From contig OY848918.1 in the NCBI GenBank assembly GCA_963693285.1, positions 248,001 through 312,000 on the forward strand: a stretch of DNA of 64,000 bases, given 5' to 3'. Both the position numbers and the translations under genes were made by a program. Within the stretch, counting starts at the first letter, position 1. Every line of letters starts with the position of its first letter. Shown here in pieces: positions 12,051 through 52,661 of this stretch. Below the pieces are notes generated by a model. It was given only the letters and a program-made list of their open reading frames with translations. It made no database searches and had not been told where the DNA came from. This DNA comes from Xestospongia muta. Taxonomy: Eukaryota > Porifera > Demospongiae > Haplosclerida > Petrosiidae.

Positions 12051-14381
12051 TTAGTAGTCCTCGTCATCAGGACTGACAGAGTCTCTATTAAAACTTTCAT
12101 AATCACTAACTCCAATGGTTTCGTAACGATGATAGCTTGAAGGCTCGAGACGTTTGAACCTACTGTTAAGAATGACATCACAATGACATCATCAATTGAC
12201 TTACGACTTTCTGAATTTCCATATACAATATATTGACATTGTCACTATGGCAACACCAACAATAATAAGAAAAGGAACAAGTATGGCAGCAGCTATTATA
12301 CCACCTGTACAACGACATCACATGACAATCACATGATAATCACATGACAATTACTTACTGTTAACCAATGATGGTTGATTAGATGCTATAAAATGATTAT
12401 AATAATGAGATAATAGTAAAAAATATCACATACTAGTTGGATGGAATGTTGTACTTATAGAGGGAGAACCAGTTATCATTGTACCAGTTATCATACTAGT
12501 TGAGCGAGTTGTTGTACTAGTTGAGCCAGTTGTCATACTACTCAAACCAGTTGTCATACTACTCAAACCAGTTGTCATACTGGTAGATATTGTACTAGTA
12601 GGTACATGTGATAGAGTATGTGACGTCATAATAATGATAGGTGTGGTTACAGACCCTATTACGATAATAAAGTGGATCATATATAATATACTGATAACAT
12701 ACTAACAATATACTGACACATAATATACTGATAATATACTAACAATATACTGACACATAATATACTGATAATATACTAACAATATACTGACATAATATAC
12801 TGATAATATACTAACAATATACTGACCATATAATATACTGATAATATACTAACAATATACTGACCTGTATGTGTAGCTACGGTAAATGTAGCTGTATAGA
12901 CTTTATATACAGTAGTTATCTGATTAAAAATGGCCACATCTAAACTATAGTTTCCTCCACTGACTGCTTGTATAGAGTGTGAAACAACATCGTTAAATGT
13001 ATGAGATGTGTTCAAAAATGGCTTCGTAAATACTACTGTCACATTATATGCTATTCCTGGAGAATTAATTATAATTCCCATTACAGGGGCATCACTCATA
13101 TCAAAAATAGAACAATGGATACTTAACATAGTATCATTAATTGATACATTACAATGTACATCAGCTTTAGGAGGACCTGTACAATAAAGGGAGATCATAA
13201 ACCCACACACGCTAATTATACATACCTCCAACAAACATCATATATGTCAGTGATGTACTAGCATACGGTCCAGTAGCATTACAAGTGTAATAACCATGAT
13301 TTTCAGGTTGTCCACTTGAGAACATAAATTGTATTGATGAAGCAGTGATAGTCACATAACTATTACTAGTATGTGAAGATGTATTAGATGAGGTCAGATT
13401 AAAAGTGGGCGGGTTAGCTTGAACAGTACAATTGAGAGAGAAGTTACTTCCAGTTGCAAACTCCACCCATTTTGTGACATTGTTACCCTCTTGAAAGACA
13501 GGACCATCTACATCAAATTAAGAGCAATTAACTATAATGATATTATACATAACATAATTGTAACATAAGTACACAACATGAATGGGTAAGCACCTATTAT
13601 GACTGCCAGCCATGTCTAAATGGTTTCATTATACTATAGTGTTATTGGATATGTAATAATCATTTTAATGGTAGACTATATTGTAGTGTGAAGTATGATT
13701 CTAGATTGTTTCACTGATAATGTGAATACGAGTACATGTTTATTTACTTGTTTGTGAACTGATAAAAGTAGTCCAGACTGTTCTAGGAAAGAGTATAGCT
13801 ACTAATATAAATTATAGTTTTGCCTGGCAACAATATTTCATATTACTAGTTAACTATAGTGACTAAACTTAAACTGAAAATCAAACTTTATTGCTAGATA
13901 AACTGTCAAATGTAAAAACAAACTCACACTAAAACCGACATGAATAATGGATATATATTTGTAGAATGGACGAATAGTACACTCACTTACAATAGACAAT
14001 GAGAGAGATATTAGAAGACACTTGATCTTTAGTTATACATTGAAACTGTCTCCCCTCATCCTCAATACTGACATTAGTAAACTGATAAGTCATATGACCT
14101 GGTCCAGTCTTATTAGAAATAATCCGATGATACTTCTCACCATTTTCAACGTGACCATCAATAACTAACTCAATGTCTACACTGACATTACTTGATATAC
14201 AATATAACTCTAACACTTCACCAACAAACAATGGATTGTTCTTTGCAGTAATATTAACAAAGCTAGTTTCACCTAAAGCCATTATATTACATAATACAAG
14301 ATGATTGGGAAGGGGATAACACTTACTAGCTACTAGAGCACTCCATTCAAAGAGCACAAGGTAGAGAAGAATAGACAGCAT
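12051..14381 (-). CDS. Ig-cluster gene A: type I membrane protein, two Ig-like and one further beta-sandwich domain
   Basis: Eight exons (14327-14381 signal peptide, 13991-14272, 13226-13507, 12865-13176, 12434-12655, 12359-12385, 12205-12304, 12051-12162) give 463 aa. The signal peptide is MLSILLYLVLFEWSALVA; an in-frame ATG five codons upstream is also possible. Domain 1 is Ig-like (ELYCISS ... RQFQCITK). Domain 2 is Ig-like (FSLNCTVQANPP ... GYYTCNATG). Domain 3 is a two-Cys beta-sandwich module of the T3 type. A Ser/Thr stalk with repeats of SSMTTG follows, then one TM helix (AAILVPFLIIVGVAIV) and a 40-residue tail with YETI and DYESF, possible SH2-type phosphotyrosine sites. It is the most diverged member of the cluster. 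N-glycosylation sequons are dense. No function is assigned; a surface receptor or adhesion role is inferred. Confidence 0.85.
12683..12864. repeat. Tandem repeat at the splice donor of gene A domain-3 exon
   Basis: About five copies of a 35-38-bp unit containing ACATAATATACTGATAATAT and ACTAACAATATACTGAC. The array starts right at the donor side of the exon 12865-13176, as the CCATATATGG arrays do for T8 exons of other cluster genes. Confidence 0.85.
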
Positions 14382-14505
14382 TTTGTCTTTTATCAAAGAC
14401 AGGGTGGGGCTGACTTAATTAACTAACTTTAATATAATGAATATTATTATTAATACAATAGGGCATCAGCAGTAAATGGCTTGTATTGTCTTAGCATATA
14501 AAAAG

Positions 14506-17500
14506 TTAATTGTTAGTACCATAACTACCAAAAACATCTTTATTATCACTCTTGCCCAAAGGAGAGAATTTTCTATAATTAAAGATAATTAAAATAATTT
14601 ATTAATTATTATTCATACCTAGTGGTTTGTCTCTTCCTCCAGAAATAAAACAAAGTTCCAACTATTATAATAACAAGTGCAATAACAAACAATGGTACTA
14701 GAATACCAGCAGCTATAGCTCCTCCTATTTGACATAATTAAAATTATTATTATTATAATAAAAGGAACTTACCATTAGATTTTTTAGAATTAGGAGTTGT
14801 AGGAGTTGGAGAAGTCGTAGGAATCATTGAAGTTGTAGTACTTCCAGAACTTGTAGAACTCGAAACAACTACATAAAGTGACATATAGATAATATAGGAT
14901 TATTACATGACTACTAAAATAGATGTACTAAATGTAATAAACTGCTATATACTAGATATACTATCATAATACAACATTAAACAAGTTTACAAAACAGGTT
15001 TGACTACTTACAATAGACATCCATTTCAATCATACCCTCTCCACTACCCTCAGTATTATTAGCATTAACTGTATAGTTCCCAATATCATCTTGTGTCACA
15101 GGTGTAAACTGTATGGCTGTAGCATTAATTAAATGAATACGACTAGTATTAGATAGGGGCTTCCCCTCAAACTTCCAAGTAAATGAAGTGACTGGAGGAT
15201 TAGCTCTCATATCAGTTATCATCATGATAACATTACTACCATTGGAGAAGGTAGTCTCTGTAAACTCAGAATATATTGGAGGATCTATAATAGATATATT
15301 ATAATGATATTAGTTTAATATAAATAACTTACATAATACAGACATTGGGAGTATTGATGACTTCCATGTATCATTGACAATACATACAAAAGTTGTATCA
15401 TCATCAAGATATGTTGTATCAATAAATGTAAAGTTCTGACTATTATCTTCATTTATTCCAGCTATTAGTCGACTGTATTTATCACCAGTAGTTGAGTTAT
15501 CAATAGATATACTAAATATGACATTCATGTCAGTTGAAGCAGAACATGTAAATGTGAAGTTATCATATTCTTTAACAGTATCAGAGGTAGCACTAATGTC
15601 CACTTCAACTTTAAATCCTACAATATTAAGAAAATAGCAAGATATTTCATTAATCACTTACCCACAATAACGTATGTTGAGTTGATAACAGTGAAATTAC
15701 CCAACATATTGATAGCAGTTAGTGTTAGAGTATAAACACCTGTTACAACATGCACTAGATCAACTGTTATAATTGAAGGAAATGTGATGTCTTTAACTGG
15801 TATAACTTCAAAATTCATGTGTTTATCTTGTATAATACCAGATAATGATATAATCACTCCAGTAGCTGGAGCATCACTATCATCATTGAAGTCACAGTTA
15901 ATAAAGAATGTTGTACCCAATGTATTATTTTGACATACAGCGTGGAAGACATTAGGAACTCCTATTGAACAGAAAAACATAATGGATATAAGAAATATTA
16001 GATTAATGCATAAAATAGTTTAATAGATATATAGAATGGTTTAATGGATCTATAAATAGATCATATATACCTCCAACAAATGTCCTATAAGTTATATTAG
16101 TTGTTCCAACATCATTAGTAGCAGAAAATGTATAGTTACCACGGTTACTGACAACTGGTGACATGAAATAAATGTAGGTAGAATTATCTTTGTACTAGTG
16201 AGAAAGAGGAAATGATATACAATAAATAATATCATAATTAGTAGGGACATACTTCATATTCAACATTGGTAGTGTTCATTGAATCATTAGTGACAATAAA
16301 CGAGCTAATTGGTGGATTAGCCCCAGATAATGTCACTATAAGTTGAGCATTTACTCCAATTAAGAACTCCTTCAATATTGTCACATTATTACCTTCTTCA
16401 AACTTTGGAGGATCTACAATAACAACATCAATGATAACAATATTATTATAATATAGTATCTTACAGTAAACTTGTAATATGAAGATAGTAGAGTTATATG
16501 TCATATTGCCATTAATACCCATACACATAAATGTTGTCCCATTATCTGATGATACAGTATTAGTAAAAGTATAGGTAGTAGCATTGGTGTTAGGATTAGG
16601 TGATGTTTCTATACGAGGATATTTTGGTCCAGTGGTAGCTCCATCAATGATGATAGACATTGTGACATTAGTTGTAGCATTACATGTGAAGATAAAGTCT
16701 CCATTCTCCATTGCTACATCACTGGTTGGTATGATAGTCACATTGACATTAGTACCTAATGGACGATAATGTTAACAATGAGTTAATGACTTGTTGATAA
16801 TAGCAATATCTTATATCATAAGTGTGTTAACAATGAGTTAATGACTTGTTGATAATAGCAATGTCTTGTATCATAAGTGTATTAACAGTGAGTTAATGAT
16901 GTAGGTGGTGACAACTTAGTAAATTTAACTTTACTACTAAGATTAAGAGACTTTTCATATTCAAAGTTAAACATTTGTTTTGCTCTGTAGTGATAGGACA
17001 CCAACCAAAATTGGTCTCATATCTCAATGTCAATATTATGGATTTGTTGAAATTCAGGTCATCTTAGAACAGGTCTTTACCTGTTCTAATAAGAAATCTG
17101 ATCCTCAACTGACTACCCTCCTCATCTCTATGATTGTAAGATGATATCATATATACAATGGAGATTGATATATTTGTTATCCCAGCCTTATCATTGTGGT
17201 CACATAGGTCACCATCTAGCAAGTTGTGGCCTCAGTTTGTGACTAAAGTTAAGATCACAATCCTCAACATGCAAGAATCTAATTATTCTCTAATATCAAC
17301 TGAAATACCCTGTAAGTTTTAACTATCTGTTTAGGTCCAATTGTAGATACCTGTTCTTCTGGCAAACTCTTAATTTAGGATACTACAAGTTCAGACATTC
17401 TTCCTACTTCTACCTATCTACTGCAATTCAAGTTATTGGTACTGAACAAGCCAAGAATTCCTATTAATGTAGAGACAACTAGATGTTTCAACCTCACAGC

Positions 17501-17910
17501 TTATTAAAGATCTTGCTTACTATTAGAGATACACGACAAAAGGAGAGCCATTATCATCTCAATACATCATAAGAAATGCATATTCTATGCAAGACACTTT
17601 GTATCATCCAAACCCATCATAGACATCATAACAATCAATACTATTAGATAATACTTTTTCTCTCTAAAACTATCCAATGTACCTACCAACACTTCAGTAC
17701 AGTATACTATGTGTCAGGAACTAGTTAGTACATAGTAATGGCAAAAGGTCAATGCAGATTTTGGGGGTGGGATCAGTATTGTACATAACAAACTACAGCT
17801 TTGTTACAGTCATTATATTGAATATAAAATTGAGGAAGAAGATAACACTTACTAGTAACTAGAATACTCCATTGATAGAAGAAGACAAGGTAGAGAAGAA
17901 GTGACTGCAT
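14506..17910 (-). CDS. Ig-cluster gene B: five-domain type I membrane protein (T1-T2-T3-T4-T5)
   Basis: Ten exons (17853-17910, 16465-16755, 16253-16413, 16071-16194, 15662-15961, 15333-15617, 15012-15284, 14773-14868, 14619-14724, 14506-14572) join in frame to 586 aa. Signal peptide MQSLLLYLVFFYQWSILVT; T1 Ig-like with Cys pair (FIFTCNA ... TTFMCMG); T2 Ig-like in two exons, without the canonical Cys; T3 beta-sandwich with two Cys; T4 Ig-like with Cys pair (FTFTCSAS ... TTFVCIV); T5 Ig-like without Cys (DDIGNYTVNANN). Then a Ser/Thr/Pro stalk, a TM helix (LVPLFVIALVIIIVGTLFYF) and a short tail RKFSPLGKSDNKD. The 1.1-kb first intron (16756-17852) shows no exon. The gene lies about 125 bp from gene A and 131 bp from gene C. 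Confidence 0.85.
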
Positions 17911-18041
17911 TTTGTTTCTTTGAGATACAGGGTGGATCTGACTTAATTAATTAACTTTAATACTAATGAATACAATTACAGCAATAGCAATAAAATTGTC
18001 TATAATATGGAATACTACAGAATGTCTTAGAGTATGTTAAG

Positions 18042-21000
18042 TTAATTGCTACTACTGGTAGTACCATAACTACTAAAAGGATTGTCGATATCATTCTTGC
18101 TCAGAGGAGAGAACCTCCTGTAATTAAAGATAATTGAAATAATTTATTTAATTATTATTCATACCCAGTGGTTCGTTTCTTCCTCCAGCAATAAAATAAG
18201 GTTCCAATTATTACAATAACAAGTACAATAACAAACAATGGTACTAGAACACCAGCAATTATAGCTCCAACTAGTTGATATAATTAAAATAATAACTATT
18301 GTAATAAAAGGGACTTACCATGAGATTTTTTATTTTTAGGATCTACATAGAGAGATACAGAAATATCATAACATTACAATTACTAGTAACTCACTAATAT
18401 ATGGTAGAGTGATAGCTTCATCCTTAACATGATAGTCACCTAGATTATTAGCAGCATATATCTTTAATGTATGTTCACCTCCTCCCAAATCAACTACAGA
18501 CTTATGAATCAAGTTATCTGCTTTATACTCAGCTCCATTGACGAGAGGTTGCAATAACTTCAATGTAATATTATCATCATCTACACCCTATAAATACATG
18601 TTGCCATGACAACCTATATATCCTCAGTATTTACCTTCATGTAGAAGATGACAGTTCTAGCAGGAGCTAAGCTAGTGTCAGTGATTATCATTGATAAATA
18701 TAGTGTCATTTGATCACCAGAACCTGTTATCCTTTGAATCACATTAACTTTAACTCCATTGGGTGGACCTATGTATATGAGATTACCATATATGGAATAT
18801 AGTTAATATAATATGTAATATGGCCATATATGGTATATAGTTAATATAATACGTGATATGACCATATATGGTATATAGTTAATATAATACCTCCAACAAA
18901 TGTTTGGTAGACAATTTGAGATGATGTATATCCATTAGTTCCAAAACAAGTATAGTTCTCATGATTCTTCTGACTAGCATTATTTATAACAATCTCAAGT
19001 GAATCAGTTCCATTTTTCTTAACACTCCAATTAGATCCATTATCATGAGATGGATAAGATACATTAAGTTTTACAACTGGAGGATTAGAGTCTATTACAA
19101 TACAACTTAATATATTACCACTAGAACCAGTTTTAAATTCAGTCCATACTGTACTATTAGTATGCTCTTTAAAGATTGGTCCATCTATAAATAGACATAT
19201 TGACACATAATTTCAATAGATAAAATATTTAACTTACAGTAAACAATTAGTTCTAAACTGGAGTTAGTGACATCAATACTATTTCTAACAGTCACAATAT
19301 AACTTCCATTATCAGTTGATTGTAATGTATTAAATTGAAGAGCATCTCGAGTTACAGTGATACGATTATCTGATGTTATCTGTTTACCATCTTTCATCCA
19401 GACAGTAGTATAGTTAGAAGGATTAGCATTGACAGTTATTGTAAAGTTAAATGATGACCCATTATAACTAGTAGTTTCATTAGATACAGTAATGATAGGG
19501 GCATCTATAATTGAAAGGGGAAATTTATAATTAACAATAGTATTTTACTTACATAGAACATTTAGTAGAAATGTTAAATTGCTAGTACCCACAATATTAG
19601 ATACAGTTAATGTATAATTGTCAAGATCTGATGGTTGAAGTTCTATAAACTGAATGATAGCATCATTTAATTTAATTCTCTCATTAGATTCCAGGGGCAC
19701 TCCATTTTTTGACCAATTATAACTACTAACAGGAGGATTAGCTGTTATATTGATCACTAATGTTATGTTATCTCCTGCTAGTTTGGTGAAATTAATTACA
19801 CCATCAGTGAATACTGGAGAATCTAAAGAAGTACCAGATAAAACAACTTTATAAAACAGGTTTGACTACTTACATAATACAGACATTGGGAGTATTGATG
19901 ACTTCCATGTATCATTAACAATACATACAAAAGTTGTATCATCATCAAGATACGTTGTATCAATAAACGTAAAGTTCTGACTATTATCTTCATTCATTCC
20001 AGCTATTAGTCGAGTATGTTTATCACCAGTAGTTGAGTTATCAATAGATATATTAAACATGACATTCATGTCAGTTGAAGCAGAACATTTAAATGTGAAG
20101 TTATCATATTCTTTAACAGTATCAGAGGTAGCATTAATATAGACATCAACATTAAATCCTACAATATTACAATGATATATTATACAATGTAAAGTACAGT
20201 CCTTACCATCAATGTAGTGTGTTGAACTGAATACAGTGACATTACCAATCATATTGACAGCTGTTAATGTTAGAGTATATATCCCTGATGTTACATATGT
20301 GAGATCAATGTTAACAAGTTCAGGATATGTTAAATGTTGAACTGGTATTGTATCAAATGATACAAGTTTATCTTGTATAATACCAGGTAATGATACAATC
20401 ACTCCAGTAGCTGGAGCATCACTATCATCATTGAAGTCACAATCCAGTATGAATGTACCACCAACTGAAGTGTTATCACAGGATGCAACAAAGTGATTAG
20501 GGACTCCTAATGGACAGATAGATAAATTGATAAATGGATACATAGAAATATAAATGGATATATAGTGTTAGTATTATGGATATATACCTCCGACAAATGT
20601 CCTGTAAGTTATATTAGTTGTTCCAGCATCATTAGTAGCAGAGAATGTATAGTTACCACGGTTACTGACAACTGGTGACATGAAATAAATGTAGGTAGAA
20701 TTATCTTCGTACTAGTGAGAAGAAGAAAATGATATACAATAAATAATATAATTAATAGGGACATACTCCGTATTCAAGATTAGTAGTATTCATTGAATCA
20801 TTAGTGATAATAAATGAGCTAATTGGTGGATTAGCCCCAGATAATGTCACTATAAGTTGAGCATTTACTCCAATTAAGAACTCCTTCAATATTGTCACAT
20901 TATTGCCTTGTTCAAACTTTGGAGGATCTACAATAACAACATCAATGATAACAACATTATTATAATATAGTATCTTACAGTAAACTTGTAATATGAAGAT

Positions 21001-22315
21001 AGTAGAGTTATATGTCATATTGCCATTAATACCCATACACATAAATGTTGTACCATTATCTGATGATACAGTATTAGTAAAAGTATAGGTAGTAGCATTG
21101 GTGTTAGGATTAGGTGATGTTTCTATACGAGCATATTTTGGTCCAGTGGTAGCTCCATCAATGATGATAGCCATTGTGACATTAGTTGTAGCATTACATG
21201 TGAAGATAAAGTCTTCATTCTCCATTGCTACATCACTGGTTGGTATGATAGTCACATTGACATTGGTACCTAATGGACAATAATGTTAACAGATGTATTG
21301 ATAATAGCAATATCTTGTATCATATTTGTACTAACAGTGAATTAATGATAACAATAGTATCTTGTATCATAAGTGTGTTAACACTACATAACCATCTGGC
21401 TACCATCTGGAAGAGGACACTGTATTATGTAATTTTGTTTTAGCAGCTATTCAATGATAAATCTGATATCATCCATTATCTAATACGTCCATATATTGTC
21501 CAGTTATCACTCTGAGTGGATAACTCAGTCATAGCCCTCATATATATTTTTGACCTGATTTGTAAAAAAAGGAATGTTTCTGTCAAAAACATTTTGCCCT
21601 GATTTGTGAAAAAGGACCCCTGTTGAAACATTTCAATAAACAGTTTTCCATATAGTTATAATGAATAGTTGTACATATATAGTAACTGTACAGTGGGGTA
21701 AGAAGGAAAATTTTACTGGGGACAGCCCAAAATGATTCACAAAACGAAGTCGATATTTAATCAATTAAAATAAATTATATAGATTAATGTAGCAGTACTA
21801 TGCTTACATGCTGAACTGTAAGTATTGGGGGGGGGGGGCAATGCTTCCCCAGCTTCAATATTGGGGGGGGGCAACTGCCCCCCTGTTCCTACTCCACTGC
21901 TGTGTATATACAAAAGTGTTTTTTGTGATGTTCTAGCAGTGGTCCCTTTTCACAATCAGGCCATAAATGTTTTGCAAGTAATGGTCCTTATTGAAAATCA
22001 GGTCAAAATTTATTGACTATAGTTTTAGTAGATAGTTCATTAAATAGACAAACATAACACGTCAATAAAATAAACATAAAAAACATTACCAAATAAAAAT
22101 AAACATTATCAAAACTTTAATACCAGAGACTGAGGCTTAAAATTAACATAACTATTTCCACATAATAACTTTTAAACATTTTAATAACACAAATGTACTA
22201 TTTCGAGATCAACTATTACAACTAATACAATTATTACAACTAATAACAGATACTTACCAACTACTGAAGTTACTGTAGTTAATAACAAGACTCCACAGAA
22301 CAATGATTGTAACAT
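18042..22315 (-). CDS. Ig-cluster gene C: eight-domain type I membrane protein (T1-T2-T3-T4-T6-T7-T8-T9)
   Basis: Fourteen exons (22258-22315, 20979-21269, 20767-20927, 20588-20711, 20207-20506, 19874-20158, 19553-19822, 19238-19504, 18891-19184, 18635-18768, 18395-18587, 18319-18342, 18165-18270, 18042-18117) give 860 aa. The signal peptide is MLQSLFCGVLLLTTVTSVV. T6 (SSYNWSKNGVPLES) and T7 (TVWMKDGKQITSDNR) look like Ig folds with the Trp but no Cys pair. T8 has a Cys pair (ILSCIVID ... ENYTCFG). T9 is a two-exon beta-sandwich. There is no Ser/Thr stalk, only a 24-nt linker exon; then a TM helix and a tail GRFSPLSKNDID. This is the only long member without T5. An NFRKB 3' relic lies upstream. 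Confidence 0.85.
18771..18890. repeat. CCATATATGG palindrome array at T8 donor, gene C (3 units)
   Basis: Three units of about 37 bp, each with CCATATATGG followed by ATATAGTTAATATAATA. The array fills the intron immediately after the T8 exon in gene C. The decamer fits the CArG-box form CC(A/T)6GG. Confidence 0.85.
21820..21890. other. G-run block with complementary C-runs in gene C intron 1
   Basis: A run of about thirteen G near 21827-21838 and a run of about nine G near 21863-21871, followed by CAACTGCCCCCCTG. The arms can fold back. It may be a transposon end or a G-quadruplex-prone site; the rest of the intron 21270-22257 shows no exon. Confidence 0.4.
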
Positions 22316-22547: not shown

Positions 22548-22680
22548 ACTCAACACTGCCTAATGTTCCTAGAGGGTATACCCCTTTCATCAGAGCTGTT
22601 AATATCACTGTTAATATGAATATTATAAACTATAATAAGTAAAAATGGTAGCTCTCCTTCTAATAAATTGTTATTATAAA
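22548..22680 (-). pseudogene. NFRKB 3'-end relic upstream of gene C
   Basis: A degraded copy of the terminal part of the NFRKB last exon (52892-53140). On the minus strand it retains peptide-level matches such as NNLLEGELPFL and HINSDINSSDERGIP against DSLLEGELPFL and HINSDISSSDEGGIP. It is detached from the rest of NFRKB and is non-functional. Confidence 0.8.
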
Positions 22681-28900: not shown

Positions 28901-29386
28901 CAGTTGCCATCATGTTATTTTCAAAAAACTAGTTCTACTATAATAATGAAAGTTGACATTTTGAGAGTTGACATTCTGGAAAGTAACTTTGATGACATCA
29001 CATCAAAATGGCGACCTAATAAGCTCAGTGGGGCAGTCAGACCCTTTAGCATGGTCCAGTGGGACAGTCCAACCCTGGGATATGTTCCAGTGGGATAATC
29101 TAAACCTTAAGCCACATACTAACTTTGATACTTAATGTTTAAGTTTTAAGTAACAGTGATCAGTGTTATGATATATGATGACTTTGGACTGTACCACTGG
29201 ACATCTATAGTTACATAATCTATATACTCTTTGTAGACTGAAAAAAGACATCTAGAGTGTATCTTGTGCTATTTCTAGATCAATTATTACAACTAATACA
29301 ATTATTACAACTAATAACAGGTACTTACCAACTACTGAAGTTACTGCAGTTAATAACAAGACTGCACAGAACAATGATTGTAACAT
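22903..29386 (-). CDS. Ig-cluster gene D: eight-domain type I membrane protein (T4-T5-T6-T7-T8-T3-T4-T5)
   Basis: Thirteen exons (29329-29386, 27671-27691, 27334-27618, 27013-27285, 26692-26961, 26376-26642, 26029-26322, 24193-24492, 23860-24144, 23539-23811, 23177-23395, 23024-23129, 22903-22963) give 903 aa. After the signal peptide (MLQSLFCAVLLLTAVTSVV) comes a 21-nt microexon coding GSKDYID. The T4-T5 pair occurs twice, before and after T6-T7-T8-T3. The stalk is long and Thr-rich (72 residues). One TM helix is followed by the tail RxGFxPL-type KAGFMPLRKNDDDE. The intron between T8 and T3 is 1.5 kb and has CCATATATGG repeats and a small hairpin. The 1.6-kb first intron carries a hAT-like insertion. 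NFRKB relic upstream at 29535-29757. Confidence 0.85.
24719..24769. repeat. Small perfect hairpin in T8-T3 intron of gene D
   Basis: The arms TAATTATTCATATTTC and GAAATATGAATAATTA are complementary over 16 bp with a 19-nt loop. The homologous intron of gene I (about 46431-46479) keeps both arms with compensating extension. It may be a transposon footprint or a structured RNA. Confidence 0.6.
25843..26028. repeat. CCATATATGG palindrome array at T8 donor, gene D (5 units)
   Basis: Five units of about 37 bp with CCATATATGG and ATATAGTTAATATAATA spacer, adjoining the T8 splice donor. The unit contains a copy of the donor-like GTATTATATT. Confidence 0.85.
28416..28843. mobile_element. hAT-like non-autonomous insertion in gene D intron 1
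   Basis: A 428-bp block with inverted ends CAGGCCCGGGG / CCCTAGGCCTG, flanked by near-identical 8-bp duplications CAACTAAC (28408-28415) and TAACTAAC (28844-28851). The homologous intron of gene F lacks the block. The interior is TAATAG-rich and has no transposase. An 8-bp duplication and CAGG-type ends are typical of hAT elements. Confidence 0.65.
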
Positions 29387-29534: not shown

Positions 29535-29757
29535 AATTTACGAGGTACTATTATCCTGTTGGTTGAAAGGTATAATCTGATGTTAATAGTGGAGGTACTT
29601 GTGTCCCTAATGTCTCTAGGAGTATGCCCCCTTCATTACAGTTACTAATATCACTGTTAATGTGTATTTCATGAACATCCTTATGAACTGTAAAGGATAA
29701 AAATAATAGTTTTCCCTCAAATAAACTGTCATTATCAACGTCTATAGATTAATCAAA
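29535..29757 (-). pseudogene. NFRKB 3'-end relic upstream of gene D
   Basis: Homologous to about 52905-53135 of the NFRKB last exon (blocks such as GTGTCCCTAATGTCTCTAGG and ATATCACTGTTAATGTGTAT). It carries substitutions and indels that break the frame. It lies between the gene D signal exon and the broken copy E. Confidence 0.85.
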
Positions 29758-36157: not shown

Positions 36158-36362
36158 TACGAGGTATTATTATCCTGTTGGTTGAAAGGTATAATCTGAT
36201 GTTAATAGTGGAGATATTGGTGTCCCTAATGTCTCTAGGAGTATGCCCCCTTCATTAGACTTACTAATATCACTGTTAATGTGTACATCATCAACATCTT
36301 TATGAACTGTAGAGGGTAAAAATGGTAGCTATCCCTCTAATAAATTGTCATTGATTAAATCA
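36158..36362 (-). pseudogene. NFRKB 3'-end relic upstream of gene G
   Basis: Homologous to the last about 230 bp of the NFRKB last exon; frame broken. It lies between the gene G signal exon and the tail of gene H. Confidence 0.85.
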
Positions 36363-42500: not shown

Positions 42501-42616
42501 GCTAAGAAACAGCAACTCATTGACAAAATGACTTAGTAACTTATTATTTAATTGGTGCTAGTGACCCCTGGGTAATTAACAATTAAGCATATATTTGCTT
42601 TAGATTAAGTTAGATT

Positions 42617-42688
<72 letters not shown>

Positions 42689-43274
42689 CACACACACACA
42701 AACTAGCGAAATTTTGCTCTATCATTTAAATTAATTGCTTCACGTCTCTACTAAGCTCCTGAAATCTCTAGTTTTGTTTCAGATGTATTTATAAACCAAT
42801 ACACAGTCTCTATAACACTATAATATAACATGTTACAATACACAGTCTCTATAACACTATAATATAACATGTTACAATACAGTCTCTATAACACTATAAT
42901 ATACCATGTTACAATACACAGTCTCTATAACACTATAATATAACATGTTACAATACACAGTCTCTATAACACTATAATATAACATGTTACAATACATAGT
43001 CTCTATAACACTATAATATAACATGTTACAATACACAGTCTCTATAACACTATAATATAACATGTTACAATACACAGTCTCTATAACACTATAATATAAC
43101 ATGTTACAATATATACTCTTTGTAGACTGAAAAAAACATCTAGAGTGTATCTTGTGTTATTTCTAGATCAACTATTACAACTAATACAATTATTACAACC
43201 AATAACAGGTACTTACCAACTACTGAAGTTACTGCAGTTAATAACAAGACTGTACAGAACAATGATTGTAACAT
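36513..43274 (-). CDS. Ig-cluster gene H: nine-domain type I membrane protein (T1-T2-T3-T4-T5-T8-T3-T4-T5)
   Basis: Fourteen exons (43217-43274, 40828-41118, 40622-40776, 40443-40572, 40084-40383, 39751-40035, 39430-39702, 38992-39285, 37740-38039, 37409-37693, 37088-37360, 36822-36944, 36675-36774, 36513-36573) give 975 aa. The block T3-T4-T5 is present twice, separated by a single T8. T2 differs from other copies at its exon junction (T2a 6 nt shorter, T2b 6 nt longer) but stays in frame. Stalk of 40 residues, TM helix, tail KxGFIPLSRNDEDEAIGITN-like. The first intron is 2.1 kb (41119-43216) and holds a CA microsatellite, a 39-bp tandem repeat and a foldback element. The tail/TM intron is rich in ATT repeats (36600-36670). 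Confidence 0.85.
38106..38160. other. G/C-run hairpin in gene H T8-T3 intron
   Basis: GGGGGGCTTGGGGGCC followed by GAAGCCCCCCC can fold back on itself. The sequence to about 38520 is not shared with the equivalent introns of D and I, so it may be part of an insertion. No ends could be defined. Confidence 0.35.
38757..38991. repeat. CCATATATGG palindrome array at T8 donor, gene H (6 units)
   Basis: Six units of about 37 bp; five carry CCATATATGG and one CAATATATGG. The array adjoins the T8 donor at 38992. Confidence 0.85.
41347..41486. mobile_element. 140-bp foldback element in gene H intron 1
   Basis: Arms of about 30-35 bp: GTGAAAGGACATTTCAGACT at the left and its near-complement AGTCTGAAATGTTCTTTCAC at the right. 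It resembles a small MITE, but no convincing target duplication directly abuts it. A second copy is at 50215-50354 in the homologous intron of gene I, so it predates that duplication. Confidence 0.55.
42619..42701. repeat. CA microsatellite in gene H intron 1
   Basis: About forty CA dinucleotides with one interruption. The matching site in gene I (near 52350) has only a short CACACACACA, so the expansion is specific to this copy. Confidence 0.95.
42803..43110. repeat. 39-bp tandem repeat in gene H intron 1
   Basis: About eight near-perfect copies of a unit that includes CAGTCTCTATAACACTATAA and TATAACATGTTACAATACA. Gene I has a single copy at about 52459-52497. Confidence 0.95.
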
Positions 43275-43494: not shown

Positions 43495-43752
43495 TTACTC
43501 AGTATCACTACTATTATCTGATGATAGCCATTGTCCACCCCTTGTTGGTTGAAAGGTATAATCTGATGTTAATGGTGGAGTTACTCATGTCCCTAATGCC
43601 ACTAGAGGTATTTCCACTTCATCACAGCTACTAATATCACTGTTAATGTGTTATATCATCAACATCTTTATGAACTGTAGAGGGTAAAAATGGTAGCTCT
43701 CCCTCTAATAAACTGTCATTATCAACGTCTATAGATTGATTAAATCATTATG
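43495..43752 (-). pseudogene. NFRKB 3'-end relic upstream of gene H (best preserved)
   Basis: Near-collinear copy of 52892-53140, from the terminal SSDTE-coding region through the ELPFLP region to about GATTGATT. Point changes and indels break the frame. The homology stops inside the NFRKB exon, which marks the old duplication breakpoint. Confidence 0.9.
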
Positions 43753-43924: not shown

Positions 43925-44007
43925 TTAACTGTTAATTGGCTCATCGTCATCATTCCTGCTCAGAGGTATAAACCCAGGCCTATAAATAAAGATAATTAAT
44001 TTATTTA

Positions 44008-44041
<34 letters not shown>

Positions 44042-47000
44042 TATTATATTATTATTATTATTATTATTATTATTCATACCTAGCAGCTCGTCTCTTCCTC
44101 CAGCAATAAAACAAAACTCCAAATATAATAACAAGTACAATAACAAACAATGGTACTAGAACACCAGCAATTATAGCTCCAACTAGTTGATATAATTAAA
44201 ATAATAACTATTGTAATAAAGGGGACTTACCATGAGATTTTTTAGAATTATGAGTTGTAGGAGTTGGAGAAGGTGTAGAACTTGCATATGGTAGAGTGAT
44301 AGTTTTGTTCATAACACTACAGTCACCTAGATTATTAGCAGCATATATCTTTAATACATGTTCACCTCCTCCCAAATCAACTACAGTTGCATTAATCAAG
44401 TTATCTGCTTTATGCTCAGCTCCATTGATGAGAGGATGAGATAATGTCACTGTAATATTACGATCGTTATTTATACCCTATAAAAACATGTTGCCATGAC
44501 AACCTATATGTCCTCAATAATACCTTCATGTAAAACATGACAGTTCTAGCAGGAGCTAAGCTAGTGTCAGTGATTATCATTGATAAATATAATGTCATTT
44601 GATCACCAGAACCTGTTGTAGTTTGATTCACATTAACTTTAACTCCATCGGGTGGACCTATGTATATGATATGACCATATATGGTATAGAGTCATGATAT
44701 GACCATATATGGAATATAGTTAATATAATACACAATATGACCATATATGGTGTATAGTTAATATAATACGTGATATGACCATATATGGTATATAGTTAAT
44801 ATAATACCTCCAACAAATGTTTGGTAGACAATTTGAGATGATGTATTTCCATTAAATCCAAAACAAGTATAGTTCTCATGATTTTCCTGACTAGCATTAT
44901 TTATAACAATCTCAAGAGAATGAGTTCCATTTTTCTTAATACTCCAATTAGATCCATTATCATGAGATGGATGTGACACATTAAGTATTATAACTGGAGG
45001 ATTAGAGTCTATTACAATACAACTCAATATATTACCACTGGAACCAGTTTTAAATTCAGTCCATACTGTACTATTAGTGTGCTCTTTAAAGATTGGTCCA
45101 TCTATAGACAAATGGAGCAAATAAATAGATACATGATTACTAAAATATGTGAATAATGTAATAAACTGCTATATACTAGAGATACTATCATAATACCACA
45201 TTAAACAAGTTTATAAAACAGGTTTGACTACTTACAATAGACATCCATTTCAATCATACCCTCTCCACTACCCTCAGTATTATTAGCATTAACTGTATAG
45301 TTCCCAATATCATCTTGTGTCACAGGTGTAAACTGTATGGCTGTAGCATTAATTAAATGAATACGACTAGTATTAGATAGGGGCTTCCCTTCAAATTCCC
45401 AAGTAAATAAAGTGACTGGAGGATTAGCTCTCATATCAGCTATCATCAGGGTAACATTACTGCCATTGTAGAAGACAGTCTCTTTAGACTCAGAATATAT
45501 TGGAGGATCTATAATAGATATATTATAATGATATTAGTTCAATATAAATAACTTACATAATACAGACATTGGGAGTATTGATGACTTCCATGTATCATTA
45601 ACAATACATACAAAAGTTGTATCATCATCAAGATATGTTGTATCAATAAATGTAAAGTTCTCACTATTATCTTCATTTATTCCAGCTATTAGTCGACTGT
45701 ATTTATCACCAGTAGTTGAGTTATCAATAGATATATTAAATATGACATTCATGTCAGTTGAAGCAGAACATGTAAATGTGAAGTTATCATATTCTTTAAC
45801 AGTATCAGAGGTAGCATTAATATAGACATCAACATTAAATCCTACAATATTACAATGATATATTATGTAATGTAAACTACAGTCCTTACCATCAATGTAG
45901 TGTGTTGAACTGAATACAGTGACATTACCAATCATATTGACAGCAGTTAGTGTTAGAGTATATATCCCTGATGTTACATATATGAGATCAATGTTAACAA
46001 GTTCAGGATATGTTAAATGTTGAACTGGTATTGTATTAAATGATACAAGTTTATCTTGTATAATACCAGGTAATGATACAATCACTCCAGTAGCTGGAGC
46101 ATCACTATTGTCATTGAAGTCACAATACAGTATGAATGTATGACCAACTGAAGTGTTATCACAGGATGCAACAAAGTGATTAGGAACTCCTAATGGACAG
46201 ATAGATAAACATAATGGATGTATAAAATTGTTCAATTACTAAAGACTAAATGACTAAATGAATGCATAGAATTTTTACGTGAATTTACTAGATTAAGGTA
46301 TGAATAGAATGGTTTAGTGAAAGAATTGATGACTACAGAATAATAGTTAATATATGTCCATATATGGTATACAACCATATATGGTATATGTTATAGCTTA
46401 TAGAATGGATAAACAGTTTATTGTAAATATAATTATTCATATTTCCTGAGGGTGGGGCCTGAAGGAAATATGAATAATTAATAAGTATATTTACAAAAAG
46501 CCACACCTATCTATGGTAGTAGTTGTTTATATCATTGAAGCCATATATGAAACATATTGTTGGGCACGAAATGATGAGTTTCTTGATAAAATGACCACAA
46601 TATGTTTTTCATTTTAATTTTTCTTTCTCTACTAATTGCTTTCATGATTACAAGATAATAAAACTTAACAAGATTTGTTTCATAGAGTCAACATAATCTT
46701 TTAGAAAAAAGAATTGAATATATGGTTATTAAATCTTAGTTAATCTTATGATGGACAATATCACAAGATCTTATATGATATGTGTGCAATGAAAACTTCC
46801 AGTCTTAAGTTGAGGCATGATCTTGCCTGAACTTACATGAGAAATAATTACTTATGTAATAACTTGATTACTTACTTGTTATCACTTATTTGAATTGGAA
46901 TCATAAAACTATCAGAGATTCTTTAAAGTTTATGTAAGATCTCAAGAAACACAGAAACAACAAGATTGTTATTGTATCTTGTAAGACTGACAAGTCTAAG

Positions 47001-50000
47001 CTGTCCAGCCATGTAACAGACAAAGTACTTTATAATACATGATATGACCATATATGGCATATAGTTAATATAATACACAATATGACCATATATGGCATAT
47101 AGTTAATATAATATGTGATATGACCATATATGGTATATAGTTAATATAATACCTCCAACAAATGTTTGGTAGACAACTTGAGATGATGTATATCCATTAG
47201 TTCCAAAACAAGTATAGTTCTCATGATTCTCCTGACTAGCATTATCTATAACAATCTCAAGAGAATGAGTTCCATTTTTCTTAACATTCCAATTAGATCC
47301 ATTATCATGAGATGGATATGATACATTAAGTGTTATAACTGGAGGATTAGAGTCTATTACAATACAACTCAATATATTACCACTGGAACCAGTTTTAAAT
47401 TCAGCCCATACTGTACTATTAGTATGCTCTTTAAAGATTGGTCCATCTATAAATAGACATATTGACACATAATTTGAATGGGCAATATAATGAGATATTT
47501 AACTTACAGTAAACCATTAGTTCTAAACTGGAGTTAGTGACATCAATACTATTTCTAACACTCACAATATAACTTCCATTATCAGTTGATTGTAATGTAT
47601 TAAATTGAAGAGCATCTCGTGTTACAGTGATACGATTATCTGATGTGATCTGTTTACCATCTTTCATCCAGACAGTAGTATAGTTAGAAGGATTAGCATT
47701 GACAGTTATTGTAAAGTTAAATGATGACCCATTATAACCAGCAGTTTCATTAGATACAGTAATGATAGGGGCATCTATAATTGAAAGGGGAAATTTATAA
47801 TTAACAATAGTACTTTACTTACACAGAACATTTAGTAGAAATGTTAAATTGTTAGCACCCACAATATTAGATACAGTTAATGTATAATTGTCAAGATCTG
47901 ATGGTTGAAGTTCTATAAACTGAATGATAGCATCATTTAATTTAATTCTCTTGTTAGATTCCAGGGGCACTCCATTTTTAGACCAATTATAACTACTAAC
48001 AGGAGGATTAGCTGTTATATTGATCACTAATGTTATGTTATCTCCTGCTAGTTTGGTGAAATTAATTACACCATCAGTGAATACTGGAGAATCTAAAGAA
48101 GTACCAGATAAAACAAGTTTATAAAACAGGTTTGACTACTTACAATAGACATCCATTTCAATCATACCCTCTCCACTACCCTCAGTGTTATTAGCAGTAA
48201 CTGTATAGTTCCCAATATCATCTTGTGTCACAGGTGTAAACTGTATGGCTGTAGCATTAATTAAATGAATACGACTAGTATTAAACAGGGGCTTCCCCTC
48301 AAACTCCCAAGTAAATGAAGTAACTGGAGGATTAGCTCTCATATCAGCTATCATCAGGGTACCATTTCTGCCATTGTAGAAGACAGTCTCTTTAGACTCA
48401 GAATATATTGGAGGATCTATAATAGATATATTATAATGATATTAGTTCAATATAAATAACTTACATAATACAGACATTGGGAGTATTGATGACTTCCATG
48501 TATGATTGATAAAAATCACATCACATTCAAAAGTTGTACCATCATCAAGATACGTTGTATCAATAAATGTAAAATTCTGACTATTATTTTTATTCATTCC
48601 AGCTATTAGTCGACTGTGTTTATCACCAGTAGTTGAGTTATCAATAGATATATTAAATATGACATTTGTATCAGTTAAAGCAGAACATGTAAATGTGAAG
48701 TTATCATATTCTTTAACAGTATCAGAGGTAGCATTAATATAGACATCAACATTAAATCCTACAATATTACAATGATATATTATCTAGTAACTACATTCAC
48801 TTACTATTGATGTGAAATGATGAGTTGAATACAATGATATTATCAATCTGATTGACAGCAATTAGTGTTAGAGTATATATCCCTGATGTTACATATGTGA
48901 GATCAATGTTAACAAGTTCAGGATATGTTAAATTTTGAACTGGTATTGTATCAAATGATACAAGTTTATCTTGTATAATACCAGGTAATGATACAATCAT
49001 TCCAGTAGCTGGATTATCGCTATCATCACTGAAGTTACAGTTAATTGAGAATGTTGGACCGAGTCTATTATTTTTACATGCAACATGGAAATCATCAGGA
49101 ACTTCTATTGACCAGAAAAAATACAATGGATCCATAAAATATGAGATAGATGCATAGAATAATTTATGGATGTATAGAATGGTTTAATGGATGTATACAT
49201 AGGTTTGATGGATGTATAGAATGGTTTAATGGATGTATAGAATGGTTTAATGGATGTATACATAGATCATACACACTTCCAAAAAATGTCCTGTAAGTTA
49301 AATTAGTTGTTCCAACATCATTAGTAGCAGAGAATGTATAGTTACCACGGTTACTGACAACTGGTGACACGAAATAAATGTACCAAGATTTATCTTTAGT
49401 ATTATACTAGAGAGAGAGAGAGAGAAAATTATGTACAAAGAGAAAATGATATACAATAAATTTCATAATTAGTAGGGACATACTTCATATTCAACATCGC
49501 TAGTGTTCGTTGAATCATTTGTGATAATAAATGAGATGTTTGGTGGATTAGCCCCAGATGGTGTCGCTACAATTTGAGCTCTATATATAGTTACGAACTC
49601 CTTCAATATTGTCACATTATTGCCTTCTTCAAACTTTGGAGGATCTACAATAACAACATCAATGATAACAACATTATTATAATATAGTATCTTACAGTAA
49701 ACTTGTAATGTGAAGATAGTAGACTTATATGTCATATTGCCATTAATACCCATACACATAAATGTTGTCCCATTATCTGATGCTACAGTATTAGTAAAAG
49801 TATAGTTAGTAGCATTGGTGTTAGGATTAGGTGATGTTTTTATACGAGCATATTTTGGTCCAGTGGTAGCCCCATCAATGATGATAGACATTGTGACATT
49901 AGTTGTAGCATTACATGTGAAGATAAAGTCTTCATTCTCCATTGCTACACGACTGGTTGGTATGATAGTCACATTGACATTGGTACCTAATGGACAATAA

Positions 50001-52661
50001 TGTTAACAGATGTATATTGATAATAGTGTTGTTGATGTTGTTCTGTTAGCAGTATGTTCACTATAGGATATGACACTATAGCATTATGTATAATGTAGTG
50101 ATGTACTATCACATAATACACCCATTATGAGGTAATAATAAATTATCAATCTTCCTTTAAAAAATGTAACAATTAGTAATTTGTTGAAAAGTCTTAGGCG
50201 AAGGGGTAATAGATGTGAAAGGACATTTCAGACTTTATATTTGTCCTTAGATATATTTTGATTGGTTGTTGTATTGTATATATAGCTTGGTTTTGTTTAT
50301 TGATTTTTAGTATTGGTTGTCCAGACAAATATAAAGTCTGAAATGTTCTTTCACAATTTAATAATTTAGTTATATGTTATTGACTTGAGACATCATATCA
50401 TGTCCATATATAATTTGTACAGTTTTAATTCCACAAGTTTTACTATTGTATGTTATTAGACTAGAATGTGTATAATATATGATAATAGTAGGAGTGGACC
50501 TCTCTCTTTTTGAAGATGACTAGTACTCAATTATATAATGTTTATTTATATTTACCATATCTACAGTAAACAGACAATAAAATTATAATATATTGATCAT
50601 ACTTGTTTATTGTTATTAATTATATATCCAGTAAGCCTAAATAAACAGAGATTGTATTCTATACCATCATTAACCATATGGGGCTGTAGATATTGTAATG
50701 GCCTATCAATGTGGTATCTTAATGTTATCACAGCTGCTAATATAATGAATAGTTTAAATGGACTTATTCTATGTGTTGTTTAATAGCTAAAGAAGTTATA
50801 CAATTACATTAGTATCATCTTCTGACTAGAAGTAAAAGTGTTAAAATGAGTGTATTAATTGACTAATGTTGACAATATAAATAACTTCATAAACAAAGGA
50901 AAGAACTGTCACTAAAGATGATCTAACTAGATGACCTTTTAAAAAAATCCCTACTTAGTGGGCTATTAATGAAGTCCTAGTAATGGATTATTTAGACTGG
51001 GAAAGTGGGATTCACCTACAACTGTTATCAAATCAACGACACAGCAAATTTGATAATACAATATTACTATAGAGTGACTTACATACTTACTAACACTAGT
51101 TGACAAGTCTGAAGGTAAGGCTATTAGCAGAGAGTAGTAATGGTTTATTGTTCCATTAGGAAACTATATATATGTCATGCTTAGGAACACTTCTAACAAC
51201 CAGCAACCACAAAAAATATTTCATGAGTAACTATATATATTAATATAGTTCCTTAGTTGACTGGCTAATGAATGAGAAAGCATTTACCAAGGGGCTTATA
51301 GGTTAATTGTTGTTGAATAGCTAGAGTTATACAAGGACACTAGTATGATCTTAAGACTATAAGTGGAAGTGTAATTATTAATTATTAAAACTGTCACTAA
51401 AAATGATCTAACTAGATGACCTGTCAAAAAAATCCCTATTTAGTCGGCTATTAAAGAAGTCTTAGTAATGGATTACTTAGACTGGGAGAGTGGGATTCAC
51501 CTATAACTCTTATCAAATCAATAAATACAGGAAATTTGATTATACACTATTACTACAGTGATTTACATACTTACTACCACTAGTTGACAAGTCTGAAAGT
51601 TATGCGATCAATTGCAAGTAGTAATCCATTAGGAAATTACTCATCTCTCAAGATTAGGAATACTTCTCACAATCAGTAACTACAAAGACTGTTTCATGAG
51701 TGTATGGCATTATAATACATGTTTGTTTTATTGACTGACTAATAAGATAGTATTTAGTAAGAATAACAGTGATTATTGAAAGAAGCTATCTATGCTAATA
51801 GTTAAGAAACAACTACTCATTGACAAGAGGACATAATAACTTATTATTATCAAATTGGTGCTTTAGAATTAAGTTAGACTACACTACTATCATAGCAACT
51901 AAATTACCTGGAATAATTGTTACAACAGGATAATGTATGCTGTTGTATTAAATGTATCTCTCCTATTATAATAACATGTCAATAAGTACAAACTCACATT
52001 CTATTAACTAGTAATACATTGATATATTACAGGGTTTGCCTCGTGTAGTGATAACTTAGATATAATGTCAAATATGATTTTGATCTCTTTCTTTAGTGTG
52101 TCCAGGATAAAGTAAACATTAGTATTGTAGCATAATTTCTGTATACTTTTCCTTTTAACATAGTCTTTGATCTTATTCACTTTCATATTGTTCTAGATTT
52201 GTCTTATATACATCTTTTAATTGTTTTCGTCTGATTTTTCCTTTCTTCAAGTTTATAACATCACAAACATCAAGTAATCATTGTACACCTGTATCCCCAG
52301 GTTCCAGTAGTAAAGCAATTATTGCATTCCTAAGTATTACTGAACCACACACACACAAACTAGTGAAATTTTGCTCTATCATTCAAATTAGTTACTTCAC
52401 ATCTCTAATAATCTCCTGAAATCTCTAGTTTTGTTTTGGAAGTATTCAAAAACCAATACACAGTCTCTATAACACTATAATATAACATGTTACAATATAT
52501 ACTCTTTGTAGACTGAAAAAAGACATCTAGAGTGTATCTTGTGCTATTCCTAGATCAACTATTACAACTAATACAATTATTACAACCAATAACAGGTACT
52601 TACCAACTACTGAAGTTACTGTAGTTAATAACAAGACTGTACAGAACAATGATTGTAACAT
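43925..52661 (-). CDS. Ig-cluster gene I: largest member, thirteen-domain type I membrane protein
   Basis: Eighteen exons (52604-52661, 49696-49986, 49484-49644, 49277-49406, 48805-49104, 48465-48758, 48144-48416, 47823-48092, 47508-47774, 47153-47446, 45890-46189, 45557-45841, 45236-45508, 44808-45101, 44524-44657, 44231-44477, 44080-44182, 43925-43979) give 1342 aa. Order: T1-T2-T3-T4-T5-T6-T7-T8-T3-T4-T5-T8-T9, then TM and tail. T9b and the Ser/Thr stalk are fused in one exon (44231-44477) where gene C has an intron. The first T4 has a 9-nt in-frame insertion near its second Cys. Intron 1 (2.6 kb) is homologous to that of gene H. It is the copy nearest to intact NFRKB, whose stop is 231 bp upstream. 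Confidence 0.85.
44663..44807. repeat. CCATATATGG palindrome array at second T8 donor, gene I (4 units)
   Basis: Four CCATATATGG units of about 37 bp directly adjoining the T8 donor at 44808. Confidence 0.85.
47036..47152. repeat. CCATATATGG palindrome array at first T8 donor, gene I (3 units)
   Basis: Three CCATATATGG units of about 37 bp directly adjoining the T8 donor at 47153. Two more single copies occur near 46359-46392 in the same intron. Confidence 0.85.
49987..52603 (-). repeat. Gene I intron 1: segmental duplicate of gene H intron 1 with an internal duplication
   Basis: The block 49987 to about 51290 is near-identical to 41119 to about 42450 in gene H. Within gene I, about 50765-51290 is repeated in diverged form at about 51310-51880 (shared blocks such as GAAGTCCTAGTAATGGATTA with small changes). 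No exon was found in this 2.6-kb intron. Confidence 0.75.
50215..50354. mobile_element. 140-bp foldback element, second copy (gene I intron 1)
   Basis: Duplicate of the foldback element at 41347-41486, carried by the same segmental duplication. Arms start GTGAAAGGACATTTC and end TGTTCTTTCAC. Confidence 0.55.

What the first reader, a model, noticed from the sequence alone, without database searches (positions are those of the whole stretch)
12051..52661. Tandem cluster of eight modular Ig-like membrane proteins: candidate recognition system
Eight intact genes in one orientation share signal peptide, TM and tail but carry 2 to 13 ectodomains drawn from one set of nine modules. All eight splice models close in frame (303-1342 aa). 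Dense N-glycosylation sequons, single-pass topology and fast turnover in copy number and domain content are what allorecognition or immune receptor clusters look like (for comparison, the Hydractinia Alr Ig-gene complex). The function is inference. I do not recognise the family as a named one.
Basis: partly seen in the sequence, partly recalled or inferred. Interest (0 to 1): 0.92.

Follow-up and report, generated by a model that had tools for sequence, protein, structure and literature searches.

The report
Tandem sponge Ig-FN3 surface receptor array
A sponge-like animal genome carries eight neighbouring genes for cell-surface proteins assembled from different combinations of the domains of one ancestral receptor, a pattern expected of a fast-changing recognition or adhesion system, though nothing yet shows what the proteins bind.

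Summary
Eight head-to-tail genes on the minus strand (52661 to 12051) close in frame with 87 coding exons, all GT-AG, giving 296 to 1342 aa with 2 to 13 ectodomain modules, 50 in all. New here: Amphimedon queenslandica LOC100633809 (P0001, 987 aa) holds each of the nine modules once, in the same order, with a similar stalk, anchor and tail. So the nine modules are the domains of one ancestral receptor, and the array is an expansion of it, found at this one locus apart from weak matches. Five of seven spacers carry a piece of the last exon of the upstream, NFRKB-like gene: growth by tandem duplication. New domain joins reuse old introns. Copies hold no stop where random change would make about 13, while replacements are as frequent as chance. 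Corrections: C and I look FN3-like, gene 8 is an older lineage, signal peptide and tail are not shared by all, and a truncated ninth copy exists. Recognition or adhesion is the likeliest role; allorecognition is untested.

The parts
43925..52661 (-). gene g1, 18 exons, 1342 aa, modules A B C D E F G H C D E H I
   Evidence: closed frame, all GT-AG
36513..43274 (-). gene g2, 14 exons, 975 aa, modules A B C D E H C D E
33882..36003 (-). gene g3, 6 exons, 296 aa (303 if a 21-nt in-frame piece of C near 35072 is a micro-exon), modules D E
30742..33371 (-). gene g4, 6 exons, 320 aa, modules D E
29932..30510 (-). truncated copy without signal peptide: pieces of A and B1, then stalk, TM and tail exons
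   Evidence: tblastn and blastn matches; not a gene model
22903..29386 (-). gene g5, 12 exons, 896 aa, modules D E F G H C D E
18042..22315 (-). gene g6, 14 exons, 860 aa, modules A B C D F G H I; tail FSPL...SYGTT as in Amphimedon
14506..17910 (-). gene g7, 10 exons, 586 aa, modules A B C D E; tail FSPL...SYGT
12051..14381 (-). gene g8, 7 exons, 480 aa, modules K M L (older relatives of A/D, B/H, C; signal peptide and K in one exon); longer tail with several tyrosines
52895..53350 (-). exon upstream of g1, taken as the terminal exon of an NFRKB-like gene (inferred from the next exon on that strand, 53960-54172); source of the pieces in the spacers
   Evidence: PF25793 match (E 2.1e-7, 30 residues) to 53960-54172; no match for this exon itself
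43543..43712 (-). broken piece of that exon, spacer g1/g2 (89% identical to the g2/g3 piece)
36165..36345 (-). piece in spacer g2/g3, in-frame stop (91% identical to the intact exon)
33526..33703 (-). piece in spacer g3/g4, frameshifted (91% identical to the g2/g3 piece)
29546..29725 (-). piece in spacer g4/g5, open over the compared stretch (91% identical to the g2/g3 piece)
22559..22668 (-). shorter piece in spacer g5/g6, open over the compared stretch (74% identical to the g2/g3 piece)

Best explanation
A lineage-specific tandem array of cell-surface Ig/FN3 recognition or adhesion receptors. SHOWN BY SEQUENCE: a nine-domain receptor (A to I, serine/threonine-rich stalk, one membrane span, short tail) has a colinear relative in Amphimedon and is multiplied here by tandem duplication of a unit that includes part of the exon upstream of g1; ectodomain exons fit phase 1-1 (B and I as two-exon pairs), so recombination in introns could add or remove domains without breaking the frame, and the new joins do reuse old introns; copies have exchanged sequence; frames are kept. 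INFERRED: the proteins stand on the cell surface as N-glycosylated rods of different length and domain content and bind partners on other cells or microbes, by like-to-like or receptor-ligand contacts; the varied modules (above all the first half of E) set specificity; g6, g7 and g8, whose tails carry tyrosines, signal, while g1-g5, whose tails lack them, serve as ligands, anchors or competitors. I think a recognition role (self, symbiont or pathogen) somewhat likelier than plain adhesion.
For: Gene models. Ig matches: (g7, g8 and the F-I piece of g6 scanned; Ig_3 1.1e-15 in g7, I-set 7.6e-24 in the F-I piece). Amphimedon relative: (E 2.5e-95), colinear alignment with g6, modules (A, B, C, D, E, H each one group with the Amphimedon module). 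Cysteine pattern per module: same number in A, B, C, E, F, G, I; D and H of Amphimedon have one and two more. Single locus: 40 of 43 matches inside the array; 12 of 13. Tandem growth: pieces of the upstream exon in 5 of 7 spacers. Domain turnover through introns: in g6 the D-F intron matches the E-F intron of g1 over 51 of 51 bases at 98% (that of g5 at 88%); the H-C introns of g1, g2 and g5 begin like the H-I intron; the SP-D intron of g3 begins like SP-A and ends like C-D. Mosaic copies: 156 of 253 informative site pairs fail the four-gamete test, PHI-like p 0.007. Kept frames: no stop in 47 A-I module copies; re-placing their substitutions at random gave 12.9 stops on average and never none in 1000 runs. 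E changes cluster: 30 of 38 replacements in the first half, p 0.0005, one of 8 modules tested.
Against: No transcript, protein, binding or polymorphism data. Replacement fraction is not distinguishable from random placement in any of nine modules, so relaxed constraint fits as well as diversification; silent changes in E (7 of 10 in the first half) do not differ in placement from replacements (Fisher p 0.675). The stop test is weaker by another measure: counted as single changes on the consensus, 5 of 376 distinct changes read as stops (4 in C, 1 in B, in codons with further changes), against 12.8 expected; 26 of 2000 runs had 5 or fewer. No charged core residue and short tails argue against a classical immunoreceptor for g1-g5. 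Nothing ties the locus to grafting: the main text of the Amphimedon grafting paper PMC5450542 has no word beginning with immunoglobulin or receptor, and reports no enrichment of cell-adhesion genes (passages).
Confidence: 0.55

Rival explanations
1. Allorecognition locus: the array encodes polymorphic like-to-like binding proteins that decide fusion or rejection between individuals, as in Hydractinia.
For: Single-pass IgSF cluster at one locus with mosaic copies and changing domain content, as described for the Hydractinia complex (passages of PMC11876637 and PMC11067881). A review says that the candidate proteins of sponges, cnidarians and ascidians are not conserved (passage of PMC12065747).
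Against: No polymorphism or binding data; replacement rate is not above random; the same review says sponges appear to have a more complex genetic system than one locus; Amphimedon, which rejects allografts (PMC5450542 abstract), shows one relative in the protein searches (both limited).
Confidence: 0.18
2. Receptors for microbes or symbionts: surface pattern-recognition proteins expanded by contact with bacteria.
For: In Amphimedon 50 Ig-superfamily genes change expression on contact with healthy native bacteria (passage of PMC13372038); expansion and frame-keeping fit a birth-and-death immune family.
Against: Whether LOC100633809 is among those 50 genes was not seen (supplements not available); no ligand known.
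Confidence: 0.27
3. Plain cell adhesion: differently long rods space cells or tissues, and copy number reflects dosage, not recognition.
For: Sequence matches in PDB are mostly to adhesion and muscle Ig proteins (axonin/contactin, sidekick, Dscam, titin, NCAM2; also the insect immune protein hemolin); short tails.
Against: Best E 7e-7 for g7 and 1.3e-10 for P0001, over one to three Ig domains; turnover of copies and domains is unusual for a structural adhesion gene (inference).
Confidence: 0.25
4. Recent redundant copies under little selection: the array is duplication noise and only the Amphimedon-like copies g6/g7 matter.
For: Replacement fraction as at random; one truncated copy and two minimal genes exist.
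Against: No stop in 47 A-I modules; in A, D, E, F, G, H alone 155 distinct changes give none against 5.3 expected, 9 of 2000 runs as low.
Confidence: 0.12
5. One complex transcription unit: read-through and alternative splicing across the short spacers make chimeric proteins from many genes.
For: Stop-to-ATG spacers of 124 to 1355 bases and phase 1-1 exons; the Amphimedon record is called isoform X1.
Against: Every gene has its own start and end; g1-g6 each keep a GTAAGT donor and an AG in front of the ATG, which suggests separate 5' ends.
Confidence: 0.1
6. Assembly artefact: haplotypes of one shorter array joined head to tail.
For: Blocks of up to 97% identity between units.
Against: Units differ in domain content, intron length and spacer, and g7 and g8 are more divergent.
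Confidence: 0.06

Closest known systems
Amphimedon queenslandica LOC100633809 isoform X1 (P0001), uncharacterised
   Same: All nine modules in the same order, S/T-rich stalk, one membrane span, tail FSPL...YGTT; 37-38% identity
   Different: One gene with each module once; here eight genes with repeated and missing modules, and five with another tail end
Hydractinia allorecognition complex (Alr genes)
   Same: Clusters of single-pass IgSF surface genes (passages)
   Different: No cnidarian protein returned; polymorphism, like-to-like binding and graft control are untested here; module reshuffling from one nine-domain gene is the distinctive feature here
Sponge aggregation factors
   Same: Sponge surface or matrix proteins discussed for self recognition
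   Different: No Calx-beta or von Willebrand domain listed for the three sequences scanned (domain make-up recalled); the array proteins are membrane Ig/FN3 proteins
Neighbour gene at C2:313.1-318.2 kb, minus strand (outside the window)
   Same: Consecutive exons that read D-like (by eye, no Pfam match), E-like (I-set), H-like (Ig_3) and C-like (fn3, just under its cut-off); weak matches to g7 and g8
   Different: Also two receptor L domains (PF01030) upstream (that they are one gene is inferred); 31-32% identity
KIR, LILR and CEACAM clusters of mammals (recalled)
   Same: Tandem IgSF genes with differing domain number and phase 1-1 exons
   Different: No homology claimed; those have known ligands and adaptor or ITIM signalling

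Membership tests
Amphimedon LOC100633809 orthologue group | Nine-module order A-I with stalk, TM and FSPL...YGTT tail | tested here: met
   Best hit of each A, B, C, D, E, G, H and I module of g1-g7 is the Amphimedon module of the same letter; F hits Amphimedon G narrowly before F. g6 is colinear at 38%. The YGT tail is met in g6 and g7, not in g1-g5. g8 is not counted
Amphimedon LOC100633809 orthologue group | Each module groups with its Amphimedon counterpart in a tree | tested here: inconclusive
   B, C, E, H starred, D 90/90, A 75/69; F, G and I not one group; few columns and long branches
Immunoglobulin superfamily | Ig domains by curated profiles | tested here: met
   Ig_3, I-set, Ig_2 and ig above curated cut-offs in g7, in g8 and in the F-I piece of g6 (three of the sequences; g1-g5 not scanned)
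Immunoglobulin superfamily | All nine modules are Ig domains | tested here: inconclusive
Hydractinia Alr family | Single-pass membrane protein with IgSF ectodomain, in a cluster | tested here: met
Hydractinia Alr family | Sequence relation to Alr1/Alr2 | tested here: inconclusive
   one search returned no cnidarian protein, but the search needs shared 5-residue words; no Alr sequence was compared
Hydractinia Alr family | High allelic polymorphism | not testable with these tools
   one genome only
Hydractinia Alr family | Like-to-like binding and control of fusion | not testable with these tools
   needs bench work
Sponge aggregation factor | Calx-beta and related domains | tested here: not met
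   none listed for three sequences at E up to 1; the defining domain is recalled
Immunoreceptors with ITAM/ITIM or charged TM | Canonical tyrosine motif in the tail or charged residue in the TM core | tested here: not met
   read by eye in the eight C-termini; g8 has tyrosines (YETI, YESF) without the full ITIM; g3 has a glutamate at the outer edge of the span; motif definitions recalled

The most novel reading that the evidence does not exclude
This is a sponge histocompatibility-type locus: a polymorphic array in which intron recombination reshuffles the domains of one ancestral receptor between individuals, so that domain combination as well as sequence marks self, with tail-bearing (g6-g8) and tail-poor (g1-g5) members acting as receptor and ligand.
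Probability: 0.14. Interest if true: 0.92.

Novelty: new variant of a known kind. Interest (0 to 1): 0.62.

Why it matters
Which membrane receptors sponges use to tell self, symbiont and foreign apart is open; the review passage in PMC12065747 calls the mechanisms of invertebrate allorecognition a mystery and the candidate proteins unconserved. This locus offers a compact, single-place, mappable candidate with a colinear single reference gene in a well-studied sponge (Amphimedon), and it shows how domain content can be varied in steps: symmetric exons, intron crossovers and tandem duplication marked by a passenger piece of the neighbouring gene. Genotyping it in graft or symbiont experiments would test the idea directly.

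Tried and rejected
Positive selection as a general claim: pooled pN/pS 0.30 to 1.19 by module and replacement fractions as at random; rejected as unproven. Intron slower than exons as proof of selection: the D-E intron has 1 variable site of 48 against 40 of 285 and 47 of 273 in the exons, but silent sites are fast too and other introns vary more, so it is left as a curiosity. Fold of the A/D module: AF2 mean pLDDT 45, not used; a profile search of it against PDB sequences gave 4 matches, all at E 0.27 or more and none an Ig protein. Relatives of g8: none at E 0.001 among 4622 candidates. More Amphimedon paralogues: the profile search returned P0001 only, but only the 7988 candidates sharing most words were scored. 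Subtelomeric position: the first 6000 bases of the contig hold 1 TTAGGG and no CCCTAA, so no claim. In the DNA search, 47 of 53 matches fall on a short repeat in the L-stalk intron of g8, not on the family. C1:413162 matches only in stalk, TM and tail, in a gene with Sushi-like repeats. Papers: none of the listings showed by title or abstract start a description of this family; LOC100633809 is in no held paper.

Not resolved: tree positions of F, G and I; no call names the species, so I say sponge-like from the Amphimedon match alone.
Full report
Observation. The window lies at 248-312 kb of a 22.1 Mb contig in a 158 Mb genome of 28 contigs. On the minus strand eight genes follow each other head to tail from 52661 to 12051. 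I found module copies by tblastn and blastn, read the splice junctions, fitted exons with the phases read there and assembled the models: all eight have closed frames and GT-AG introns only. There are 87 coding exons, 17,289 coding bases and 50 ectodomain modules. Each ectodomain module is one phase 1-1 exon, except B and I, which are split in two exons that together are symmetric, and K of g8, which shares its exon with the signal peptide. An N-terminal hydrophobic stretch scores above 1.6 in 7 of 8 (g7 lower), and each model has one strong membrane segment before a tail of roughly 20 to 40 residues. A ninth, truncated copy lies at 30510-29932.

The relative that explains the nine modules. 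A search of 5.8 billion proteins with g7 gave two matches: P0001, Amphimedon queenslandica LOC100633809 isoform X1 (E 2.5e-95), and a fish CD22-like protein at 7.2e-7. P0001 is colinear with A to I, each module once, and shares stalk, membrane span and a tail with FSPL and YGTT. In a tree of 59 modules (50 of the window, 9 of Amphimedon) the groups A, B, C, D, E and H each form one side of a branch with their Amphimedon member (support from 75/69 for A to 100/98 for H), while F, G and I are not resolved; the tool warns of few columns and long branches. K, M and L of g8 fall outside A+D, beside B and H, and beside C, so g8 looks like an older lineage; no database relative of g8 was found. In the own genome, 40 of 43 matches of g7 and 12 of 13 of g8 lie inside the array (only the best candidates are scored). 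The nearest outside match lies 2 kb beyond the window, with receptor L domains and D-, E-, H- and C-like exons next to it.

How the array grew. The exon upstream of g1 on the same strand (52895-53350) has no Pfam match; the next one up (53960-54172) matches an NFRKB winged-helix domain (PF25793), so I take the gene as NFRKB-like. Pieces of that first exon sit in five of seven spacers (g1/g2 to g5/g6), with the frame broken in three of the five and open over the compared stretch in two. So the duplicated unit includes part of that exon. No such piece was found before g7 and g8, which have another signal-peptide exon. g1-g6 share a 5' flank with GTAAGT and an AG 46 bases apart in front of the ATG, which looks like a 5'-UTR intron (inference). 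The non-ancestral joins are few (H>C, E>H, D>F, E>stalk, SP>D) and tell their origin: the D>F intron of g6 matches the E>F intron of g1 over its whole length at 98%; H>C introns start like the H>I intron (85 to 97% over 115 to 156 bases, partly internal repeats); SP>D of g3 starts like SP>A and ends like C>D, with a short remainder resembling the end of C before D in g3, g4 and g5. In the D-intron-E block (9 copies) 156 of 253 informative site pairs fail the four-gamete test and the neighbour test gives p 0.007: copies have exchanged sequence.

Selection. The 47 A-I module copies hold no stop. Re-placing their 473 substitutions at random gave 12.9 stops on average and never none in 1000 runs. 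By a stricter like-for-like count, 5 of 376 distinct single changes read as stops on the consensus (4 in C, 1 in B, in codons with further changes) against 12.8 expected; 26 of 2000 runs were as low. In A, D, E, F, G, H alone it is 0 of 155 against 5.3, 9 of 2000 as low. g8 and the truncated copy are left out, and the modules come from models that had to be open, so this speaks for kept frames among these genes only. The share of replacements is not distinguishable from random placement in any of the nine modules, and pooled pN/pS runs from 0.30 (F) to 1.19 (E). In E 30 of 38 replacements lie in the first half (p 0.0005, one of 8 modules tested), but so do 7 of 10 silent changes. This fits a receptor whose amino acids are free or driven to vary while the frame is kept; it does not prove positive selection. 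Sequons are 10 to 72 per protein, above the shuffle mean in 8 of 8.

What it does. The anatomy says cell-surface rods with varied ectodomains on a common anchor. The tails of g6 and g7 keep the Amphimedon pattern with a tyrosine, g8 has several tyrosines, and g1-g5 have none. I infer two classes, tail-bearing and tail-poor. Roles considered: recognition of microbes or symbionts, allorecognition, and plain adhesion. In favour of the first, 50 Ig-superfamily genes of Amphimedon respond to native bacteria (PMC13372038, passage; membership of LOC100633809 not seen). In favour of the second is the likeness to the Hydractinia complex, described as single-pass IgSF genes with polymorphic ectodomains in clusters (PMC11876637 and PMC11067881, passages). 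Against it, a review says sponges seem to have a more complex genetic system (PMC12065747, passage), and the Amphimedon graft study reports no enrichment of cell-adhesion genes (PMC5450542, passage). None of the three has a direct test here.

Literature. The listings and the id search showed no paper describing this family; that is a statement about the held library and what I saw of it. PMC5450542 was seen as abstract, outline and passages; PMC12018476, PMC11876637, PMC11067881, PMC12065747, PMC10280926 and PMC13372038 as passages; PMC10855680 as a listing.

Verdict. It is a new, unnamed array of a known broad kind (tandem IgSF surface genes), made distinctive by its derivation from one nine-domain receptor and by frame-neutral domain reshuffling. 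The allorecognition idea remains open and testable.

Noticed in passing
window 59875-64000 (+), running on to about C2:312140: Another Ig/FN3 surface gene on the opposite strand with a long TTSTSTIP-repeat stretch followed by a membrane-like segment.
   Followed up: partly
L019:3111-8162 (-), C2:313.1-318.2 kb; similar exons again in L020: Two receptor L domains, Ig exons and an fn3-like exon in a row; L020 shows near-identical L-domain-type exons (by eye, not scanned), so a second small duplicated receptor locus may lie next to the array.
   Followed up: partly
window 48417-48464 (g1, first copy) and eight other D-E copies: The 48-base D-E intron is nearly invariant (1 variable site in 9 copies) between exons with 14-17% variable sites; no explanation settled.
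   Followed up: partly
window 57000-58695 (+): CTNNBL1-type gene (PF08216), useful as a synteny marker.
   Followed up: no
window 3542-5538: Ets-domain frame (+), a Pointed-domain frame on the other strand (4425-4793), and a ribosomal L14-type frame (5077-5538).
   Followed up: no
window 12664-12864: Repeat in the L-stalk intron of g8; 47 of the 53 matches fall on it across many contigs.
   Followed up: no
window 42875-43156 (-) and 9757-10134 (-): Short tandem repeats read through as open frames; not genes.
   Followed up: no
L021:1093-9313 (+), C1:407-415 kb: A gene with many Sushi-like repeats and a TM, flanked on both sides by near-identical tyrosine-kinase-type exons (by eye, not scanned).
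   Followed up: no
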